DNA of 64,000 bases from Plumapathes pennacea (Eukaryota; Cnidaria; Anthozoa; Antipatharia; Myriopathidae), in NCBI GenBank assembly GCA_964036295.1, contig OZ038463.1:4827274-4891273 (forward strand). Direction: 5' to 3'. The position numbers were made by a program, and so were the translations under genes. A model generated the notes under the pieces. That model had not been told where the DNA came from. It searched no databases and saw nothing but the letters and a program-made list of their open reading frames with translations. Position 1 is the first letter of the stretch. Each line of letters opens with the position of its first letter. Of the stretch, positions 49,952-60,500 are shown one piece after another.

Positions 49952-51314
49952 AATAGGGGGAAATGGTTGTTTGTGCTGCATTATAATAGAACTTTCTAAA
50001 GCATTTGGAACACAGAAAAAAAGAAAGCAGAAAATATTCTGTATTTCAATATTATAAATGATCGTACTTCCATTTATAACTTCTTCCTGTCCGCTTCACT
50101 TCTGGAAATATTTTCAGGTAGGAAGTCTTATGGGTGAATATGCTACATGAACCATTGATTTGGCATTGTAATGCTAATTTCCTATCATTATCTGCAAAGA
50201 TGTCGAAGTTAGTTAATATACGAAGATGTCATTTTATCGAAGTGTATAAAATTTACAAGTAATCTTTTGGACAATTTTATCTTCGTCACAAAGCTGTCAA
50301 GGGTTGCGTTTGATGCTCGATAATGCGTTTGATCAACTCAGTTACGTTGTTTGACTCGCCCCTTTTTTCATGTCTGGTTCTTTTCTCTTATTAAAGTTGG
50401 TAACATTCATCGTTCTAATATCTTCTAATATTCGGATATCTAAGAGCAACAGAAACATGACTTGTTTTAGTTTGCTTAGAGAATTATAACCCTTAACTGC
50501 TGAAGCCTTTTAATAGTCATTCTTCAAATTAACCAATGTCTAAGTCGGTAAGTCCTGAGCTTTCGTCTAGCAAAGTAACTGAGTCTGCAAAGAAAAATTA
50601 ATTTCATCAATCTCAGGAGTAAGTTAAAGGCTTCACTCTTGTTATGCTTTAGCGCGACTCTGAATAATTGATATTAAGGTTTCAACTCTTGACCGTTATA
50701 ATATTGTAGGACATCAAGATATTAGATAACTAAAGCAGGGAAAATACATTTTAACTTCTTTAGTCTGTTAAAAATGAAATTGCTGTATGTATGTTGTCGT
50801 TATAACACTCGGTCTTCAAGCTGTGTAAACTACTCCGTTGTTGGTCAATAAACGCCGTGTTCAGCTGCCTGCCTGAAAAAACAATATCCAGAAAATCTTG
50901 CTTGAAACAATTAAGGACGGATGAGTTTAGTTTAGACAGCTACTGAATGTGTGTAAACAAATTACTTTTTGGCTCTCCTGGCCCCGCCCTCCAAAAGGGC
51001 TTCCTAAGAAGTATGCACAGTTTTACCTGTTTCGATTAACAAGCATATATCTCAGCCGAAAAGACTTTATTGTACGTCCTCATCATCCTTTATATATCTT
51101 CCTTCACGCGTGGCCGATTGTTATTCACTCACTGATGATTACCGTCTGGCCGCCAAACGTTATATTGAGTCACGTGCCATGATTCCACCAATCATGCGCG
51201 AGAGAATATCGGATGAGTCATACAATGTCAAATATCAGCTGCGTAATCGGTTCTGAACCATTGAGCACCAAAAACTTTCGGGGTGAAGATCAAAGGCCAC
51301 AGAAATACCTAGCA
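49952..51314. other. Intergenic interval between the CACHD1-like gene and the astacin-lectin gene
   Basis: AT-rich, stop-dense 3' flank, then about 250 bases of more balanced sequence upstream of the astacin ATG. A GATTCC-ACCAATCATGCGCG stretch near 51180 resembles the GATTGG repeat modules in reverse. An in-frame ATG at 51213 could extend the astacin protein, but would bury its signal peptide. No gene called. Confidence 0.45.
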
Positions 51315-54300
51315 ATGAGCGCTTTTTTTCTTTGTATCCTGACTTGCATCGTGGCGGCGACTGCATCTCCAGGTACGTGTCGTGAACCTCGGCGATTAAT
51401 CCTTTCATCTCCAATAAACCACAGCTGAATTAATTAACCCTTTGAAATTTTGTGGATTGGCGAAATGGGTTGTTAATTATCACTCAAATGAAATATCCCA
51501 TAGATTCGAACAAATTTAAAGGCTAAATTCACGTTGTAAGCGAAAGAGTTAAATTTGTAAAAAAATATTTCTGGTTTTTTTCTTTCAACGATGACACCCA
51601 TATCATGATCACAATGACGACGATAACATTCTTGATGATATGTTGATGGTGATAATAACTTGCGTATGCGGATGTGTGGTGTGACGATGTTCATGATGAG
51701 GGTGGTAATTCATGATGATGGTATAGTGGACAATTTGGTTACGACTGATTTGATGCGGCTGATAATATGATGCTGTGACGATAATGATGTTGATTATACT
51801 CAGTGATGGTTTGCAGGAGGATCTTCGCCGGATAGTTATGTGTTCGTAGGAGACATGAAACTGAGCATCAGAGAGAGGCAAGTTTACTTTGGTAAACCGA
51901 CAAAGGCGATGCTGAGGAAAGTCTGGCCTGACAACACTATCTATTATGAGATTGATGACGCACTGAGTGAGTCTTTTCTTTATTTATTTGCTGCACATTT
52001 TTATGCTAGTATTGTTCGTAAACAGAAAGACTTGTAAGTAAAACGGTCTTTGTTTGAAGTGTTAAAAGATGTTGTTTGACCTCTGTGCGCAGCCACGCAG
52101 TCACAAACAGATAATTTTTATGAAGAAATTAGAAAAGCACACTTTCATAAACTGCTTTCCTGTTACAATTTTGTAATTGTTGTAATGAACACATTGACTG
52201 AGAACTTCCCATGGAGTGGTCGAATTTTTTAGAAAAGCTTAGAAAATGGAAGTTATCTGGGTAAAATATTTAAAGCTTGATTTTCGCGAGTGACATGCGT
52301 CAAATGAAACCGAGACGCAGCAGGTTTTTTTTCCTTGTGCAGAGTGTAATTTCGCTTGCGTTGGGCACTGTTTGCACTGCTATAGTGATAACACGACTCT
52401 TCTCCTTGTCACCGTTACCGTCGCTCGTGAAAGGTTCATTTTCTTGTTTGATTGTTTTCTTTGCTCCATCTTTCAGTCCAGCAACACATCGCACACACGA
52501 TGATAAAGACTGCTTTGGCTCATTGGGAATACCGCACGTGTCTGAAGTTCAAAAAGAGAACCACACAACCCGACTACATCAAGTTTATTCCCAAAGTGGG
52601 GTGCGTTTAAAGTTTAGCGATTAGTTTTTTTTTTTTTTTTGGATATTAATCCATGATCACCGCAACGAACTCATATTTACATCTCACTACGCTACTATAA
52701 TAAAACCTTAACAATTACCAAGAAAGACAAACAAATTGTCTTGGGGTTTTATTCTAGTCGTGCTTTCTTTCTCAGTTGCTGGTCACGTGTTGGTTTCCAG
52801 GGAGGCGCACAGGAGATCAGTGTTGGTATAAGGTGTTGGACTCATGGAAGCATTGTTCATTTAATAGGTAAGATGGTCGAGTGCACAGCCAAACACGGCA
52901 CGACACGACCACTTGACAACACTACACTACACAGCACGACACGACACGACCACACGACTACACACACTACACAGCACGACACGACATGACCACATGACTA
53001 CACCACACTACACAGCACGACACGACCACATGACTAAACTACACTGAAACGAGACAACGGCGCAACTCCACTACTACACAGCACGACACGATACGACACA
53101 TGACTAAACTACACTGAAACGAGACAATGGCACAACTCCACTACTACACAGCACGACACGGCAAGACACGACACGACACGATACATGAAGATGCCATACC
53201 ATACAAAAGGACGTGACAACACCATGTGAAATAGCGTTGAACGGCACGTGACACAAAATGACACCACGTGACAACATGACTACATAATTATGGTGCGTCA
53301 GTATAACCATCAGTACAAAACAGACCTGTCAGGCGCTTGATGGCTATATTTTTTGTTGCTTTCGGTTGTCAGGACATGCTTTAGGATTCTTGCACGAAGA
53401 GAATCGTCCCGACCGAGACAGTTGGGTCCAATTTCACCCGGAAAATCTTAAGGATGGTAAGTGCATGTCGGCACAGATCGTGTCTGCAGTGACGTGAAAT
53501 GTTTTGTGTTGTAGTAACGATTATAAAAGACGTCAAGTTTTAGGGCCCGGTTGCTCGAAAGCCGAATAAGCTAATCCAGGATTAACGAAATTCTTTCTTT
53601 TGACCTCTCTGCCAATAAATCGCAGAGTTTTGTTCAAAGCTTGTTACAGTGTATCAAGGAAGTCGTTGTGGACGAAACCTTCACTTTTTTAGGCTAACAA
53701 ATTATAAAAAAGTTTAGACCTAATCCAGGATTAGCCTAATCGTGCTTTGAAAAACCGGGCCCAGAGGATCGTACTGTTAACTAACAAATAATAAGACAGA
53801 ACCAGAAAGCAACTATCGACTTAATATAAATTTGATATTTTCACTACGTCGACAATACGACACTGCTTACTGTATGCTTCCAAAAAATAACCAAACGATC
53901 TGATATTACTCAAAGGTAAATTTCCTTCAAAAGACAACAAGTAGAATTAATATACTAATAAAATTTGCTTAACACAATAAATGTGTTTCTCAAATCTTGA
54001 AGGAGAGCGTGTTTCAGACGTCTTTCCCAAGCTACAAAGTTCGTATTTTAACTGGATGAGCTTTGGCACTCCTTATGATTACTTCTCCTGCATGCATTCT
54101 CGAGTGGACGCACACAGCAAGAACGGGAAGGTCACTTTGACACCAACACTACCCAAAGTAAGTGGCAATCTTTGATATATCCTGCGATAAGCGCTCCGTG
54201 ACAAAAGTCGGACGAAGGGGAAGGGGGTAGAAACGCCTGCTTTCATTCTGGTCTTCTTTCTCCACCCCCGTCCCCTTCGTCCGACTTTTGTCACAGTTGC

Positions 54301-56424
54301 CGACTGTCTTACAGCACAAAATGTCTGCATGAATCTGTAAGAGATACAATCATGGGAGAAACTTTGGAGAAAGGGTTAATTATGACATCAAAATTACTTT
54401 AACTAGGTCCTGAACTAGCAATACTTTAGTTTAGAGTGTTTAGCAAATGACCAAATCTGATTTCCAAATTTCAAGCATTGCTAATGTACACAGGATGAAG
54501 AAATGTTTAAGCAAAATGCTCATAGCATTAATCCAGTTTGCAATGTCTCATACACTCTATGTACGATTTTTCGTTTAACAAACTAATGTCAAATTTGCGA
54601 CTTAGTCAGCCTATGCGTTAGACGCATAAACGTGCGTTTTTTACGCATATTTTTTCTTGAAAACGCATTTTTAATGACGCGATGCGTTTGCTGACGCGTT
54701 TTTAATGTCGTTGAAGTTACGAGTGAGACCGGAGCTATGGTAATACGTATTTTTCAGACCGTCATACGCATTTTTACGGCAGGTTCGCGTTTTTAAACGC
54801 ATTTTTCAAAAACCTAGCGCGAAGGCTGTTAGTGTTGTTTAAAAACATACCAAGGTTTTATCTGCTACTGCATGAAATATATAGCAAAGGCTATTCTCCA
54901 AACCTTTTCTTGTGTTTATATTGTAGTCCTGATACTTAATTCAGTCGACAAAAGCTGATACTACCATCAAATTCTCGCCATATCCGTCACGGTTTTAACC
55001 CTTTCACTCCCAAGCTCTAAGTACAGATTCCAACCTTTTAGGAGGAGATTGTATGAGTGACGTAGTGGTAACTGATAGTTTAATCAGCTATTACTGTAGC
55101 TTAGCAAGGTATCAAAAGCCAAGTTCTCCTTACCGTATAATATATTTGTGCTTCCGAAACTGAAGGAGAAAATTGAACTTGAACACTCTTGGGAGTGAAA
55201 GGGTTAATGGTTGAGAGAAGTTGCATGTTGTGCCTGGGAGTTTAAAAAAATCAACTTAGTTTGTTCGGTCCAACTTTTTACCGTTCACCAGGAGCTCTCA
55301 AGTCTTTATAACTATGCACTTATATTTACTAAATAACGCTGCCTCTGTGATTACATACAGGTTCCTCTAGTCGCTGTTGGGGATAGTAGCTACGGACCGA
55401 GCTACCTGGATTTTCAACAAACAAATCTTCTGTATAAGTGCCCTGGAGGTACCCAATATTTATCACCATTTGCACTATGGCTAGGGAAATTTCTAGAAAG
55501 ATACGAAGATATTGATAAAGATTAATGTTGATGTTGATACTAGTGCTTTATTGTTTATTAATACATTACCCAAACTGTTTTATTCAGATTCTGGAAAGTA
55601 CAGAGGTGTAATATGTGAACACCGGAAGAGCACTCTGTCTTGTTTTGGAGGAAGGAAGATTAAGATTATCAATGCCAATTACGGACGAAAAAGATTTTCG
55701 CTTTGTGGAGTTGGTTTCAATCTAAACTGTGGAAAAGAATCTTCATTTAAAAAGGTTTGTAGTACTGTTTTGTGTACCAGATTAATGATTGGGTATAATT
55801 AGTAAACACGGTGTCTGTGCATGTACACGTGTTGGTTGTTATCACTTATGTTATGTCTGTGAAGAGAAGTAGCATCTAAATATCTGAAATATATACGTCA
55901 TCTGAATATTTAATGTTACATCAATCATCCAAATATCTGAAATATACATCATCTTAACATCTAAAATATGCACGATGTGCACATCTGAAATATATGATCT
56001 AAATATCTAAAATTAACACTCAAAGTGTATACTATTCCTTATGTTTTCATTTCTGGTGTATGTCTGCATATATGTGTTTGTACATGGATTGGTACGTTAA
56101 TGTGCGTGTGCATATAAATCATGGATACAGATATTTTAACATTTTATGCACATTTTATCATTTCTTTAATTTGCAAGCATTCAAAAGTTGTGCCCACTGC
56201 AGTAAACGCGGCTGTTCAATACGCCACATTCTGTTGAGCCGACATGAGCATGTGCTAGTAGGTTAGCCAGTCCGGTCGCTCAAACTGTATTCCTTGTTCG
56301 TCAGGTACAAGAGCTGTGCAATGGTAAAGCAACCTGTTTACTCCACGCCTCTAACAGCGTATTTGGAGACCCCTGTCCTCTTAATCTGAAATACCTGGAT
56401 GTGAGTTGGGAGTGTCATCCGTGA
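51315..56424 (+). CDS. Secreted astacin-like protein with SUEL-type lectin domain; protease motif degraded
   Basis: Nine exons: 51315-51372, 51817-51966, 52477-52600, 52776-52867, 53373-53456, 54003-54157, 55361-55448, 55588-55754 and 56305-56424, all phase-consistent, give 345 residues. The signal peptide is MSAFFLCILTCIVAATASPG. The prodomain keeps the astacin Asp-switch motif FVGD (residues 29-32). The astacin domain is clear from WPDNTIYYEIDD, GCWSRVGFQGGAQEISVG, the zinc region IVHLIGHALGFLHEENRPDR, and YDYFSCMHS. All three zinc histidines (139, 143, 149) remain, but the family Glu after the first His is Leu140, and the Met-turn Tyr is Ser202. Residues about 251-343 are a galactose/rhamnose-binding lectin (SUEL) domain: VICEHRKSTLSCFGGRKI, CNGKATCLLHASNSVFGDPC, KYLDVSWEC. 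It is probably a secreted, carbohydrate-binding, catalytically inactive astacin. Confidence 0.9.
51590..51815. repeat. Degenerate GATGAT/ATGATG tract
   Basis: Imperfect 'gatgatgttgatggtgat'-like repetition in astacin intron 1, reaching to the exon 2 acceptor. Confidence 0.6.
52876..53290. repeat. ACACGAC-type degenerate satellite in astacin intron 4
   Basis: Repeating 'cacgacacgaccac' and 'ctacactgaaacgagacaa' units. A roughly 80-base higher unit ('catgactaaactacactgaa' through 'cagcacgacacg') is present at least twice. Confidence 0.85.
53541..53764. mobile_element. Inverted-repeat element with GGGCCCGG ends
   Basis: Ends 'tagggcccggttgctcgaaa' and 'gctttgaaaaaccgggccca', with internal 'aatccaggattaacga' and 'aatccaggattagcctaatc'. 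A fragment of the same family ('taatccgggattaacctaa' and 'cagccgggcc') lies at 38730-38775. Confidence 0.7.
54198..54294. mobile_element. 97-bp foldback with perfect 23-bp arms
   Basis: The segment starting GTGACAAAAGTCGGACGAAG at 54198 is exactly inverted at 54272-54294. The interior is purine/pyrimidine asymmetric. It lies directly after astacin exon 6. Confidence 0.85.
54995..55207. mobile_element. TTAACYC-family MITE, copy C
   Basis: Ends 'ttaaccctttcactcccaag' and 'cttgggagtgaaagggttaa'. It shares the core blocks 'gatagtttaatcagc', 'agcaaggtat' and 'aagttctccttaccgta' with copies A and B. It lies in astacin intron 6. Confidence 0.9.
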
Positions 56425-57588
56425 GGTACCGTAGTTTAACTTCCTACTCCATAATTATATTTTCACTTTTTGACGTATATTATCACGTGACCGATGAAGT
56501 TTCAAAAATGGCCGCCAAATGGGGAAACAACTAACAGTTTGCAACTGTCTTTGGTGTGTTATTTCTGCAGATGATTGAATTTTCGATATATGTCAACACT
56601 TTGTACACTGATAGCTGCTATTTTCTTCTGTTTTGACAGGCACCAATGAATGGGATAATGGCCAAAATGAACAACCCAGACTTGCATTGCTTGATATTCA
56701 ATAAATGATTTTTTCACCCGTGACGCTGTTTTATGTCCCCTTTCTTCTCAATAAGAAATCTCTCTCCCCCTGCTGCTGCCGTGCCCGAGCTCTGTTTATT
56801 GGGCAATAATCACAACGCAAGGTTGGAATAATATGGCTATGAGTAAAGGCCCATAGCCGCCTTTATTAACTATTATTATATCAAATATATTAAAATCATT
56901 TGGACTGTATCGATATATAATGTGGCCCAGTAAAGGTGAGGGCAAACATAAACGCAAACACAAGCTACTAGTGTAAATAACTCAGATGTGGTAGGAAATG
57001 GGGGAGGAGGGATGAACAAACACGTCTAGCTTCGGCGACAACTTGAAGCGAGTGACCACCTCATGGCTTAATGTAATCACATGATCACCTAACTAAGGTT
57101 AACTAATTAACTCCTCCCCAGACTATAGCTAACAAATATTAATACCCTAAAGAGGACATAAAAATCCTATTTGCAGGCAAATATTCCTACGTATGTTTTT
57201 AGTATTTACTGTAAGAAAATATTATGCTATAGACATGATATAATATTTTTGATATAAAACAGAACCCATAAAAGTATCTAAATTGTTTATTTTAAGTTTT
57301 GCATTACATAACCGATGTACACAGTATTCTATTCTATTTGTATAGTTTCAGCCGATTACTTGACCATAAACAATGCAATTAAGGCTAACACAAATTTGAA
57401 AAAGCCCAAGTTGCTGACCCCTATATTTGTAGAAGATTACAAAACCAATTTTCAAAAAAAGCCGGTGCTGTGTTAAACAAAAGAAGCAGCACAAGTACAC
57501 CCCGATTTAGAAACAAAATACGTGCAGCTCCTAAATATGAGCGATACGTTGCAAATAGTCGCAAGGACAGTTAGCTTCCGGCGCCAGC
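56425..57588. other. Convergent intergenic region between astacin-lectin (+) and BBOX1-like (-)
   Basis: Holds an AATAAA at about 56699 that may end the astacin transcript, and AT-rich flanks. A TTTTGACAG acceptor-like site near 56640 could serve an alternative last exon spliced from CTGGAT|GTGAGT at 56400, but that would cut the lectin's last cysteine. No other gene seen. Confidence 0.4.
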
Positions 57589-60500
57589 TCAAACGGCCTG
57601 AAAATCCTCTATTGTTTGTCCCCAATCCTGCAAAAGGATGCGCTTTCTCGAATTAAGCGCGTCCCAGTCAACATAGCCACCCTCTGCCCAGCGCTTCCCA
57701 TTGATTCCCAAATCAAATGCTCTACGCCCATGGAAAACACGTCGATTGTTGAGTGTATACATTTCTCCCGCTTTCATCTTTATCTCGACAATATTTCTGG
57801 GATCACGGATCAATTTAATAAACTTGGCGTAGGCTTCGTAGAATTCCTGGGTTTCTTTTACCGTCATGTCTAACTTCGTGCCTCGACTGTGTTCACTGCA
57901 TGTGATTTGACGGAGTTTCCCTTGATGGTCAAGCCTAGAAATAACAAGAAATATATATTCATATATTCATAGTAATAGTGATAGTGGTGACAGTCCAAGG
58001 TTTAAGAAGATCAGGAACTTGGCAAAGATAATATAGTCTGAGGATTCATAACTGAGGATTTGTATGCATGTACGACTTTGTTCGCATGTGCACCAAGACA
58101 GCCAATGAAGACGCTTGAATGTTATGAATGTTAAATATTATGCTGGACTGTTCCAGGCAATGGACGATGTAGTTACCGTAAAAATTTTCGGGGGTCGAGG
58201 AGGGGGGGGGGGGGGGGGGCGCTTATTCGAATTTTTACGGTAATTGCAATTATTGATGCAGATCTTAAAATATTATAGATTTTGAACTGCAATTCACCTT
58301 GGCACAAGGGTATCTGTGGAGGAGGGAGAGGCTAAATTAAGTCTCTTGATGCAAACTAAATTATGTGACACAGTGTATGGACGCAATATAAAGAAAATGT
58401 ATGGGCAAAACTGACACATGATAATTTAAGATTTTGTGAGTGTGTATACAGGTAACCCCTCTGCTCTTTACTCAGGCATGCAGAGCGGTCTTCCGACAAC
58501 TATCGTAAACTAAAACCAAAGCCAGTCACACAAGTATACAGACTGTTTTAACCAGCCGGAACTCAAAGTAAGTAATTTACGATAATTGGCTGTATTTAAT
58601 TTACAATTGAGACCAATCAGGGCGGAAGAAAACGGCATCGGCACTGCTAGTTTGTTCTTCAGTCAATATTATCTGCGGTATCCACAATTGCAAGTTTTGT
58701 GATGGCAGTCATCTGGAAAACGTAACCATACCTTATTGGGGTTTTATGGCTTCGAACTAGGTGTCGCCCATTACTGTGAATTCCCTCGTCGATGTGAAGA
58801 AGAGAAATTTTGGTCAGAAAGTCAAATGCCTTTGGGTCCATCTCCTGTAGCTTCAGCGCCACATTGAATCCATCAATAAACAAACTGTGACCCCCTTTTG
58901 GTGCTTGCTTTAGAAAGTGGAGGAGGAACACCTTAAAAGATCAGGAAGGGCCGTGTTAGCATCACAAATAAATGTGTCTCATGCAGGATGGTCCTCACAT
59001 ATGTTTCCTATATATGGCCGTCCCGCTAAACAGCGTATATGATTTTCATTCTCCTCTCCTCCTTCCCCCCCCCCCCCCCCCCCCCCACTCCCGCCCCCAC
59101 CCCCACCCACCAACCCGGTAGAAACGTACTTACATCGGGAGTACTGTCAAAGTATGCCAAATCAAGGTGCAGAAGCAGGCTTTGATTTCTGTAAGCCACC
59201 CCAATATTCTCTGGTCTGTCTATCAGCTCAAAGGTTTTACTGAAAATTTAGGACAAGCAACTAAGTCTTTTTTTTTCCTTTCTCTTATTTTTCTTTTGTA
59301 TTTTAGGGATCGAGAATTGGTACGCGTTGATTGCATGATTGATGCGTGACATAAACTACAGCTCATCCAAGTATTGAGTTTCTTGGCTGAGAATTGAAGT
59401 CGTAAGAGCGTTGCTATAAAATCTGCACTGACCGCTGACTCAAAAATAAGGTGACTGCACGGTCAAAAAACCTTTTTAACACAACACACTTGATTCTCGC
59501 TCTCTGATTGGTCGATTTACCGTGGTAAATAAGAGTCCAGACAACGATGCTGACGCCAGCATGTCACGCTTTGCAGCGAAATACAACAAAACTTTCCTGT
59601 ATATTTCTAAATATTGTAGTAAAAAACAAATTTCCACTGATTTGCCGTGGTGTGGACTCTTATTTACCACGATTTACGTCATCACATGGTCATAATTAGT
59701 TGTGGACTCACTCGGCGAAGCGCCCTCAACATTTTGACCAAATGATGACGTAAATCGTGGTAAATAAGAGTCCACACCACGGCAAACCAGTGGAAATTTA
59801 TTAACTTTCCGGCGGTCAGTGTCGGTCATGATTCTTTTTCTTAATCGTGGTGGCTGCTTTTGTCTTGGAATCAGCACACAGAAACTATTGTAACAGACTC
59901 CTTTGCTTACTCACCGGCAAAACAAGCAAGGCGATATCAGGCTGCCCGGGTCACGCCGAAATAGATTGATATGCATCAAGTAATTATGAGGGCCTTGATG
60001 GGGTTTACTGTTGAGTGTTATGGGCCTGAATTTTTTACTATTAAGTGTTATGCAGACTCTGCCCCCCCGCACCCCATCTAGGCCCTCAATTATAGAACTT
60101 ACCCGAACAGAGTGCTATGAATGCATCCAGCCGCGTGTTTCCCCAGCCGCGTCAGTTGTCCTAACTGTTGAGGAACGTCCTTTATGATTACCAGGCCGTA
60201 AATCTGCAGAGCCTCAATCCACCTAGTATATAGTTCAATTAATCAATCAACCAATCAATTTTTAAGTGCCACATAATTGCAACTGTTTGTGCCAAACGCT
60301 ATCTAGAAGCAGCACATGGTTCTTGTCTCCTATATTGTTCATATACGAAGTCTTTGCATATATTCGGCCGAACTTGTTTCTTAGTTCTGTTGACTTTGCA
60401 ATTTTGCTCGCGGACTTAGAATTGGGTATTTTGGGGATGACTGAATTTACAGGTTCGGATTTGGAGCGCGATTGCGCGTGTGTTGTAACAGCGGCTGCGT

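What the first reader, a model, noticed from the sequence alone, without database searches (positions are those of the whole stretch)
51315..56424. Astacin-SUEL lectin fusion whose zinc motif has lost the catalytic glutamate
The sequence reads HLIGHALGFLHE where astacins have HExxHxxGxxHE. All three zinc histidines, the Asp-switch FVGD in the prodomain and the surrounding fold signatures are kept, but Glu is replaced by Leu and the Met-turn Tyr (SVMHY type) by Ser. Both changes fall on residues that polarise water or stabilise the transition state, so the domain should bind zinc but not cleave. Joined to a C-terminal SUEL lectin, it may be a secreted carbohydrate-binding decoy or scaffold. All nine exons keep clean splice sites and frame, arguing against a decaying pseudogene. 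That it is an inactive protease is inference.
Basis: partly seen in the sequence, partly recalled or inferred. Interest (0 to 1): 0.75.

Follow-up and report, generated by a model that had tools for sequence, protein, structure and literature searches.

The report
Dead astacin protease fused to lectin
An animal gene encodes a probably secreted protein whose protease domain has lost the two side chains it needs to cut, while its zinc-holding residues and its attached sugar-binding domain look intact, so it most likely binds things rather than cutting them.

Summary
Nine exons (51315-56424, all introns GT-AG) encode 345 residues: astacin domain (E 8.1e-42) then SUEL lectin domain (E 2.3e-18). 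The zinc motif reads HLIGHALGFLHE, the Met-turn SCMHS.

New evidence comes from the host genome (G000, 290 Mb). Glu is kept in 36 of 36 paralogs counted (3 further loci were not readable). Ten of them share the intron that splits this motif and read HEIG|H, so HEIGH became HLIGH here, by at least two base changes. Of 39 columns conserved in 31 paralogs the gene lost 5, two being the catalytic Glu and Tyr; the zinc histidines, family Glu, Met and disulfide cysteines remain. Five losses lie within the paralogs' range (0-8, median 2). The lectin keeps 8 cysteines and 5 of 6 sugar-contact residues.

Best reading: a catalytically dead, probably zinc-binding pseudo-astacin carried by a working lectin. 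Its partner is unknown. Against this: its end branch is long (1.26, median 0.58), and no other species or transcript could be examined, so relaxed decay is not excluded.

The parts
51315..51372 (+). Exon 1: start codon and hydrophobic signal-like N-terminus (MSAFFLCILTCIVAATASPG)
   Evidence: signal peptide judged by eye, no predictor run
51817..51966 (+). Exon 2: short prodomain with FVGD (Asp32, Asp-switch position) and start of the astacin domain (WPDN, Trp56)
52477..52600 (+). Exon 3: astacin domain, Cys91
52776..52867 (+). Exon 4: astacin domain, Cys112, Cys131, first half of the zinc motif (HLIG)
52861..52863 (+). Codon TTA (Leu140) in place of the general-base Glu
53373..53456 (+). Exon 5: second half of the zinc motif, HALGFLHEENRPDRD
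54003..54157 (+). Exon 6: Met-turn SCMHS
54098..54100 (+). Codon TCT (Ser202) in place of the switch Tyr
55361..55448 (+). Exon 7: end of the astacin domain, Cys248
55588..55754 (+). Exon 8: first half of the SUEL lectin domain (Glu261, ANYGR)
56305..56424 (+). Exon 9: second half of the SUEL domain (Asn323, Asp328, DPC, KYL) and stop
56640..56720 (+). Possible tenth, non-coding 3' exon (donor just after the stop, acceptor before 56640) with AATAAA at 56700; its end is not determined
   Evidence: inference

Best explanation
A single-copy gene for a probably secreted, modular protein: signal-like N-terminus, short prodomain with the Asp-switch FVGD, an astacin domain that is catalytically dead, and a C-terminal SUEL (L-rhamnose/D-galactose type) lectin domain with its binding site largely kept. 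Shown by sequence: the general-base Glu and the zinc-switch Tyr are replaced (E140L, Y202S), whereas the three zinc His, the family Glu, the RPDRD stretch, the Met-turn Met and the four disulfide cysteines remain, and paralogs in the same genome keep the Glu. Inferred: the domain folds, holds zinc by three His (and Asp32 while the prodomain is attached) and cannot polarise water or stabilise the transition state. Most likely mode of action, inferred: the lectin anchors the protein on glycans of mucus, matrix or microbes, and the dead cleft acts as a non-cutting binder, either a substrate trap or a decoy for astacin substrates or inhibitors.
For: Gene model and domains. Glu kept in 36 of 36 paralogs counted, 10 of which share the intron inside the motif and read HEIG|H, so the loss is derived; GAA (L087, L110) or GAG (L086, L089) to TTA takes at least two base changes. 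Of 39 conserved columns 5 are lost, two of them the catalytic pair; if the five had fallen at random among the 39, both would be hit about once in 74 times (20/1482, arithmetic). Of 16 columns invariant in the paralogs, 15 are kept and only E140 is lost. Total loss lies within the paralogs' range of 0-8. SUEL: 8 of 8 cysteines, YGR and DPC motifs, and 5 of 6 CSL3 sugar-contact residues. Limulus Glu140Ala zymogen as structural precedent.
Against: End branch 1.26 against a median of 0.58, among the longest. Three further conserved columns are lost (G130R, I167L, F207H). No expression, dN/dS or second species. Decoy or trap role has no direct evidence. The paralog models come from an aligner that used the window protein as query, so their ends are rough.
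Confidence: 0.58

Rival explanations
1. Relaxed decay: the gene lost catalysis by drift and is on its way to a pseudogene; the intact frame only means that the loss is recent.
For: Long end branch; no close paralog; five conserved columns lost, reached or passed by 5 of 31 paralogs.
Against: 345 codons open with 8 of 8 GT-AG introns. The Glu codon differs from GAA by two changes, through GTA (Val) because TAA is a stop, plus a separate Tyr change. Structural columns, disulfides and the lectin site are kept.
Confidence: 0.25
2. The domain still cuts, by another general base or a rearranged site.
For: Zinc His and Met-turn Met are kept; an extra Cys199 sits beside the Met.
Against: The Glu is described as the general base/acid of astacins (PMC9848320) and its replacement by Ala was used to make a catalytically impaired Limulus astacin. 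The transition-state Tyr is also lost. The bond at the usual activation place reads Lys46-Pro47, whereas 7 of 7 paralogs with a readable FxGD prodomain have Arg followed by Ala, Gly or Asp (read by eye).
Confidence: 0.07
3. Assembly or sequencing error at the Glu codon.
For: No reads were available.
Against: Two adjacent base changes in an otherwise intact frame, together with an independent change at the Tyr 1.2 kb away; the motif is preserved on both sides; no second copy in the assembly.
Confidence: 0.03
4. The SUEL and astacin exons belong to two genes.
For: It is the only SUEL match near an astacin match in this genome.
Against: Phase-1 junction in frame over a 139-base intron; no start codon with a signal-like stretch was noticed before exon 8; domain follows domain with a short linker.
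Confidence: 0.05

Closest known systems
Limulus astacin LAST-MAM, Glu140Ala zymogen (PDB 8a28; PMC9629494)
   Same: Best astacin hit among solved structures (E 4.2e-30); same motif numbering; Asp-switch prodomain; the same Glu replaced
   Different: There the change was engineered and the Tyr is kept; its C-terminal domain is MAM, not SUEL
BMP1/tolloid astacin domains (PDB 3edg, 6bsl)
   Same: Astacin fold, cysteines, zinc histidines, RPDRD
   Different: They keep HELGH and SIMHY
Inactive ADAMs of family M12, such as ADAM7 (HQLGHNLGMQHD) and ADAM29 (HHLGHNLGMNHD) (PMC11266112)
   Same: Metzincin domains that keep the zinc histidines and the Met-turn but have lost the Glu
   Different: Other subfamily of M12, membrane proteins with a disintegrin domain; ADAMs do not use the astacin Tyr switch (recalled)
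SUEL/L-rhamnose-binding lectins CSL3 (PDB 2zx0) and 5h4s
   Same: Eight cysteines, YGR and DPC motifs, most sugar-contact residues
   Different: Those are tandem lectin domains only; here one SUEL domain follows an astacin domain; contact Gly83 is Leu332
Cnidarian ShKT-astacins such as Hydra HAS-7 (PMC8191133)
   Same: Secreted astacins; typical cnidarian kind according to that paper
   Different: Active enzyme (HAS-7 cuts Wnt3) with ShKT domains instead of SUEL

Membership tests
Astacin family M12A (PF01400) | Profile match over the whole catalytic domain | tested here: met
   E 8.1e-42, 143.5 bits against a cut-off of 22.5, profile 2-189 of 189
Astacin family M12A (PF01400) | HExxHxxGxxH with general-base Glu | tested here: not met
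   HLIGHALGFLH; histidines kept, Glu is Leu140
Astacin family M12A (PF01400) | Family Glu after the third His and ExxRxDRD | tested here: met
   HEENRPDRD
Astacin family M12A (PF01400) | Met-turn SxMHY with zinc-switch Tyr | tested here: not met
   SCMHS: Met kept, Tyr is Ser202
Astacin family M12A (PF01400) | Four cysteines of the two disulfides | tested here: met
   Cys91, 112, 131, 248
Astacin family M12A (PF01400) | FxGD Asp switch in the prodomain | tested here: met
   FVGD, residues 29-32
Astacin family M12A (PF01400) | Peptidase activity | not testable with these tools
   Predicted absent from the two lost residues
SUEL lectin family (PF02140) | Profile match | tested here: met
   E 2.3e-18, 66.8 bits against 31.4, profile 1-80 of 80
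SUEL lectin family (PF02140) | Eight cysteines, YGR and DPC motifs | tested here: met
   Cys260, 269, 290, 298, 311, 317, 330, 343; ANYGR; DPC and KYL (motifs as described in PMC3269628)
SUEL lectin family (PF02140) | Sugar-contact residues of CSL3 | tested here: met
   5 of 6: Glu261, Tyr282, Asn323, Asp328, Lys335 kept; Gly83, a main-chain contact, is Leu332 (alignment, residues)
Pseudoprotease (functional, non-catalytic homologue) | Catalytic residues lost with the fold kept | tested here: met
   by sequence only
Pseudoprotease (functional, non-catalytic homologue) | The loss is conserved between species under purifying selection | not tested
   No animal genome other than the window's own was within reach; scans of viral contigs and of genome contigs with this gene gave no relative, and the alignment scan gave bacterial loci

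The most novel reading that the evidence does not exclude
A lectin-anchored pseudo-astacin: a dead, zinc-holding protease domain kept by selection as a glycan-localised regulator that captures substrates or inhibitors of the animal's many active astacins, in the manner in which iRhoms and inactive ADAMs serve in other families. The unpaired Cys199 next to the Met-turn and the Lys46-Pro47 activation bond would then be further steps of a domain rebuilt for binding.
Probability: 0.25. Interest if true: 0.6.

Novelty: new variant of a known kind. Interest (0 to 1): 0.42.

Why it matters
Dead members are well described in the ADAM branch of the metzincins but the passages and listings seen here describe none for astacins, a family that has expanded strongly in this genome (150 exon matches scored out of 284 candidates). 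A natural Glu-to-Leu and Tyr-to-Ser astacin tied to a lectin would give a test case for whether animals use dead astacins as regulators or recognition proteins, and it warns against naming every PF01400 gene a protease or venom enzyme.

Tried and rejected
Alternative splicing giving HExxH: rejected; no other exon with HE before a donor between exon 3 and exon 6, and skipping exon 4 would break the frame (phases 2 and 1). Second copy or haplotig with Glu: none; the protein search of the genome found the window's own exons, and the next best match has 43% identity (117 of 186 candidates scored). Tandem paralog in the window: none.

Relatives in public contigs: viral contigs nothing; genome contigs with the single protein 10 pattern matches, 0 relatives; with the alignment 47 bacterial loci, used as a control only. 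The search patterns do not cover the Glu position, so they do not select for it.

My first exon table put the end of exon 7 one base short and gave a broken frame; corrected. The branch of the tree that holds the gene is not well supported (85/85, no starred set), so no nearest paralog is claimed. dN/dS was not computed because no close relative was found. Structure prediction was not run: whether a spliced product counts as the window's own letters was unclear from the rule of that tool.

Literature on natural dead astacins or astacin-SUEL fusions; in their listings and in the passages read I saw none described. This covers open-licence papers only. I did not open most listed papers. [quoted passage not shown]
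Full report
1. Gene and motifs. Reading 50000-58500 and splicing at canonical sites gives nine coding exons from 51315 to 56424, 8 of 8 introns GT-AG, 1038 bases, 345 residues. Pfam gives Astacin at residues 56-249 (E 8.1e-42) and SUEL_Lectin at 267-343 (E 2.3e-18). Residues 139-150 read HLIGHALGFLHE and 198-202 read SCMHS. The motif is split by intron 4 after the first base of the Gly codon. My spliced aligner recovers exactly these exons. No exon encoding HE before a donor lies between exons 3 and 6. The stop is followed at once by a plausible donor, with an acceptor before 56640 and AATAAA at 56700, so a tenth, non-coding exon is likely; this is inference.

2. The host genome settles the direction of change. 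The window is C2:4827274-4891273 of a genome of 290,015,204 bases in 24 contigs. PF01400 gives 150 scored exon matches out of 284 candidates, a lower bound. The window protein finds its own exons and then only distant relatives (best other match E 1.6e-12, 43% identity; 117 of 186 candidates scored), so no near copy was found. I spliced 31 paralog astacin domains from fetched loci, taking the best-scoring gene of each locus. All 31 have Glu after the first His. Eight more paralogs chosen because an exon starts at the same place were fetched as 901-base pieces; five were readable and all read HEIG followed by a donor, three did not reach the exon. Three further genes inside fetched loci (L084, a third gene of L102, a second gene of L090) also read HE but were not counted. 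Ten paralogs (L086-L090, L108, L109, L110, L112, L113) share the intron position and read HEIG|H. The Glu codon is GAA in L087 and L110 and GAG in L086 and L089; L110 reads CACGAAATAGGTAAG where the window reads CATTTAATAGGTAAG. So the Ile and the splice site are kept and only the Glu is gone, by at least two base changes; since TAA is a stop, the route from GAA runs through GTA (Val).

3. What was lost and what was kept. Among columns with at least 85% agreement in the 31 paralogs and at least 24 letters, 39 are covered by the window gene; it departs at G130R, E140L, I167L, Y202S and F207H. Sixteen columns are invariant in the paralogs; the gene keeps 15 and loses only E140. Left out one at a time, the paralogs lose 0 to 8 such columns, median 2, and 5 of 31 lose five or more; the models are rough at their ends, which inflates some of these counts. 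Both pre-named catalytic columns fall among the five lost; at random among 39 that happens about once in 74 (20/1482). In bacteria 47 of 47 loci have Glu, and 29 of the 31 that reach the column have Tyr; 5 of the 47 are weak matches. Tyr is lost in one paralog too (L101, which keeps Glu), so Tyr loss alone is not unique.

4. Against a simple story. In a tree of 31 rows (window and 30 paralogs; L071 left out) the end branch of the window gene is 1.26 against a median of 0.58; L081 has 1.76 and L105 1.26. Its place is not well supported. A long branch fits relaxed constraint as well as a change of role.

5. Zymogen part. FVGD (29-32) keeps the Asp of the switch. In 7 of 7 paralogs with a readable FxGD prodomain (L075, L079, L080, L089, L096, L097, L101) an Arg followed by Ala, Gly or Asp lies 7-10 residues before the Trp of WP (read by eye). 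Here, 9 residues before Trp56, the bond is Lys46-Pro47. Proline after the cut site usually blocks trypsin-like cleavage (recalled); a cut at Lys49-Ala50 is not excluded.

6. Lectin part. The SUEL domain has all 8 cysteines, ANYGR, DPC and KYL. Residues that bind the sugar in CSL3 (Glu7, Tyr27, Asn74, Asp79, Gly83, Lys86; PMC3269628, passages) align with Glu261, Tyr282, Asn323, Asp328, Leu332 and Lys335. The genome holds 30 SUEL matches, 33 of 33 candidates scored. By comparison of the lists, the window's is the only one close to an astacin match; the next nearest pair is about 214 kb apart (contig C9). A weak astacin exon outside the scored list could have been missed.

7. Function. PMC9848320 (section 5 part 1, section 11 and passages read) describes the Glu as general base/acid and the Tyr as a zinc ligand that swings out to stabilise the intermediate. 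PMC9629494 (passages) made Glu140Ala in Limulus astacin to stop autolysis and reports a catalytic zinc ion in that structure. By analogy the window protein should fold and hold zinc but not cut. I take it as a glycan-anchored binder. That it traps substrates or shields inhibitors is a proposal without direct evidence.

8. Comparison with what is known. PMC11266112 (passages) lists inactive ADAMs in M12; in the passages seen, astacins appear only as active metzincins. The domain list in Figure 1 of PMC9848320 holds C-type and ricin lectins but not SUEL. [quoted passage not shown] I rate it as a new variant of a known kind.

Noticed in passing
L101 (G000:C1:28949000-28954500): A second odd astacin: Glu kept, but the Met-turn reads SLMHL (no Tyr) and the third His is followed by Thr instead of the family Glu; the model holds one in-frame stop.
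   Followed up: partly
window 54095-54097 (Cys199, within SCMHS): An unpaired cysteine directly before the Met of the Met-turn; all other cysteines of the mature protein fit known astacin or SUEL pairs.
   Followed up: no
window 57589-57966, minus strand: An exon of a TauD-type dioxygenase gene (PF02668, E 1.6e-11) lies downstream on the other strand.
   Followed up: no
window about 52890-53200 (intron 4): The intron that splits the zinc motif is filled with imperfect CACGACACGAC/CTACACTACACAGCACGACACG repeats.
   Followed up: no
G000:C2:8525123-8565987: Seven SUEL matches within about 41 kb, a cluster of lectin genes without a scored astacin match near.
   Followed up: no
G000:C1:40692123-40692903: A SUEL domain in two pieces (57% and 35% identity to the window protein), apparently with an intron near the place of intron 8 of the window gene; nearest scored astacin match about 400 kb away.
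   Followed up: no
G000:C1:2849636-2976725 and C11:1067510-1205821: Dense clusters of astacin exon matches, which suggest tandem expansions.
   Followed up: no
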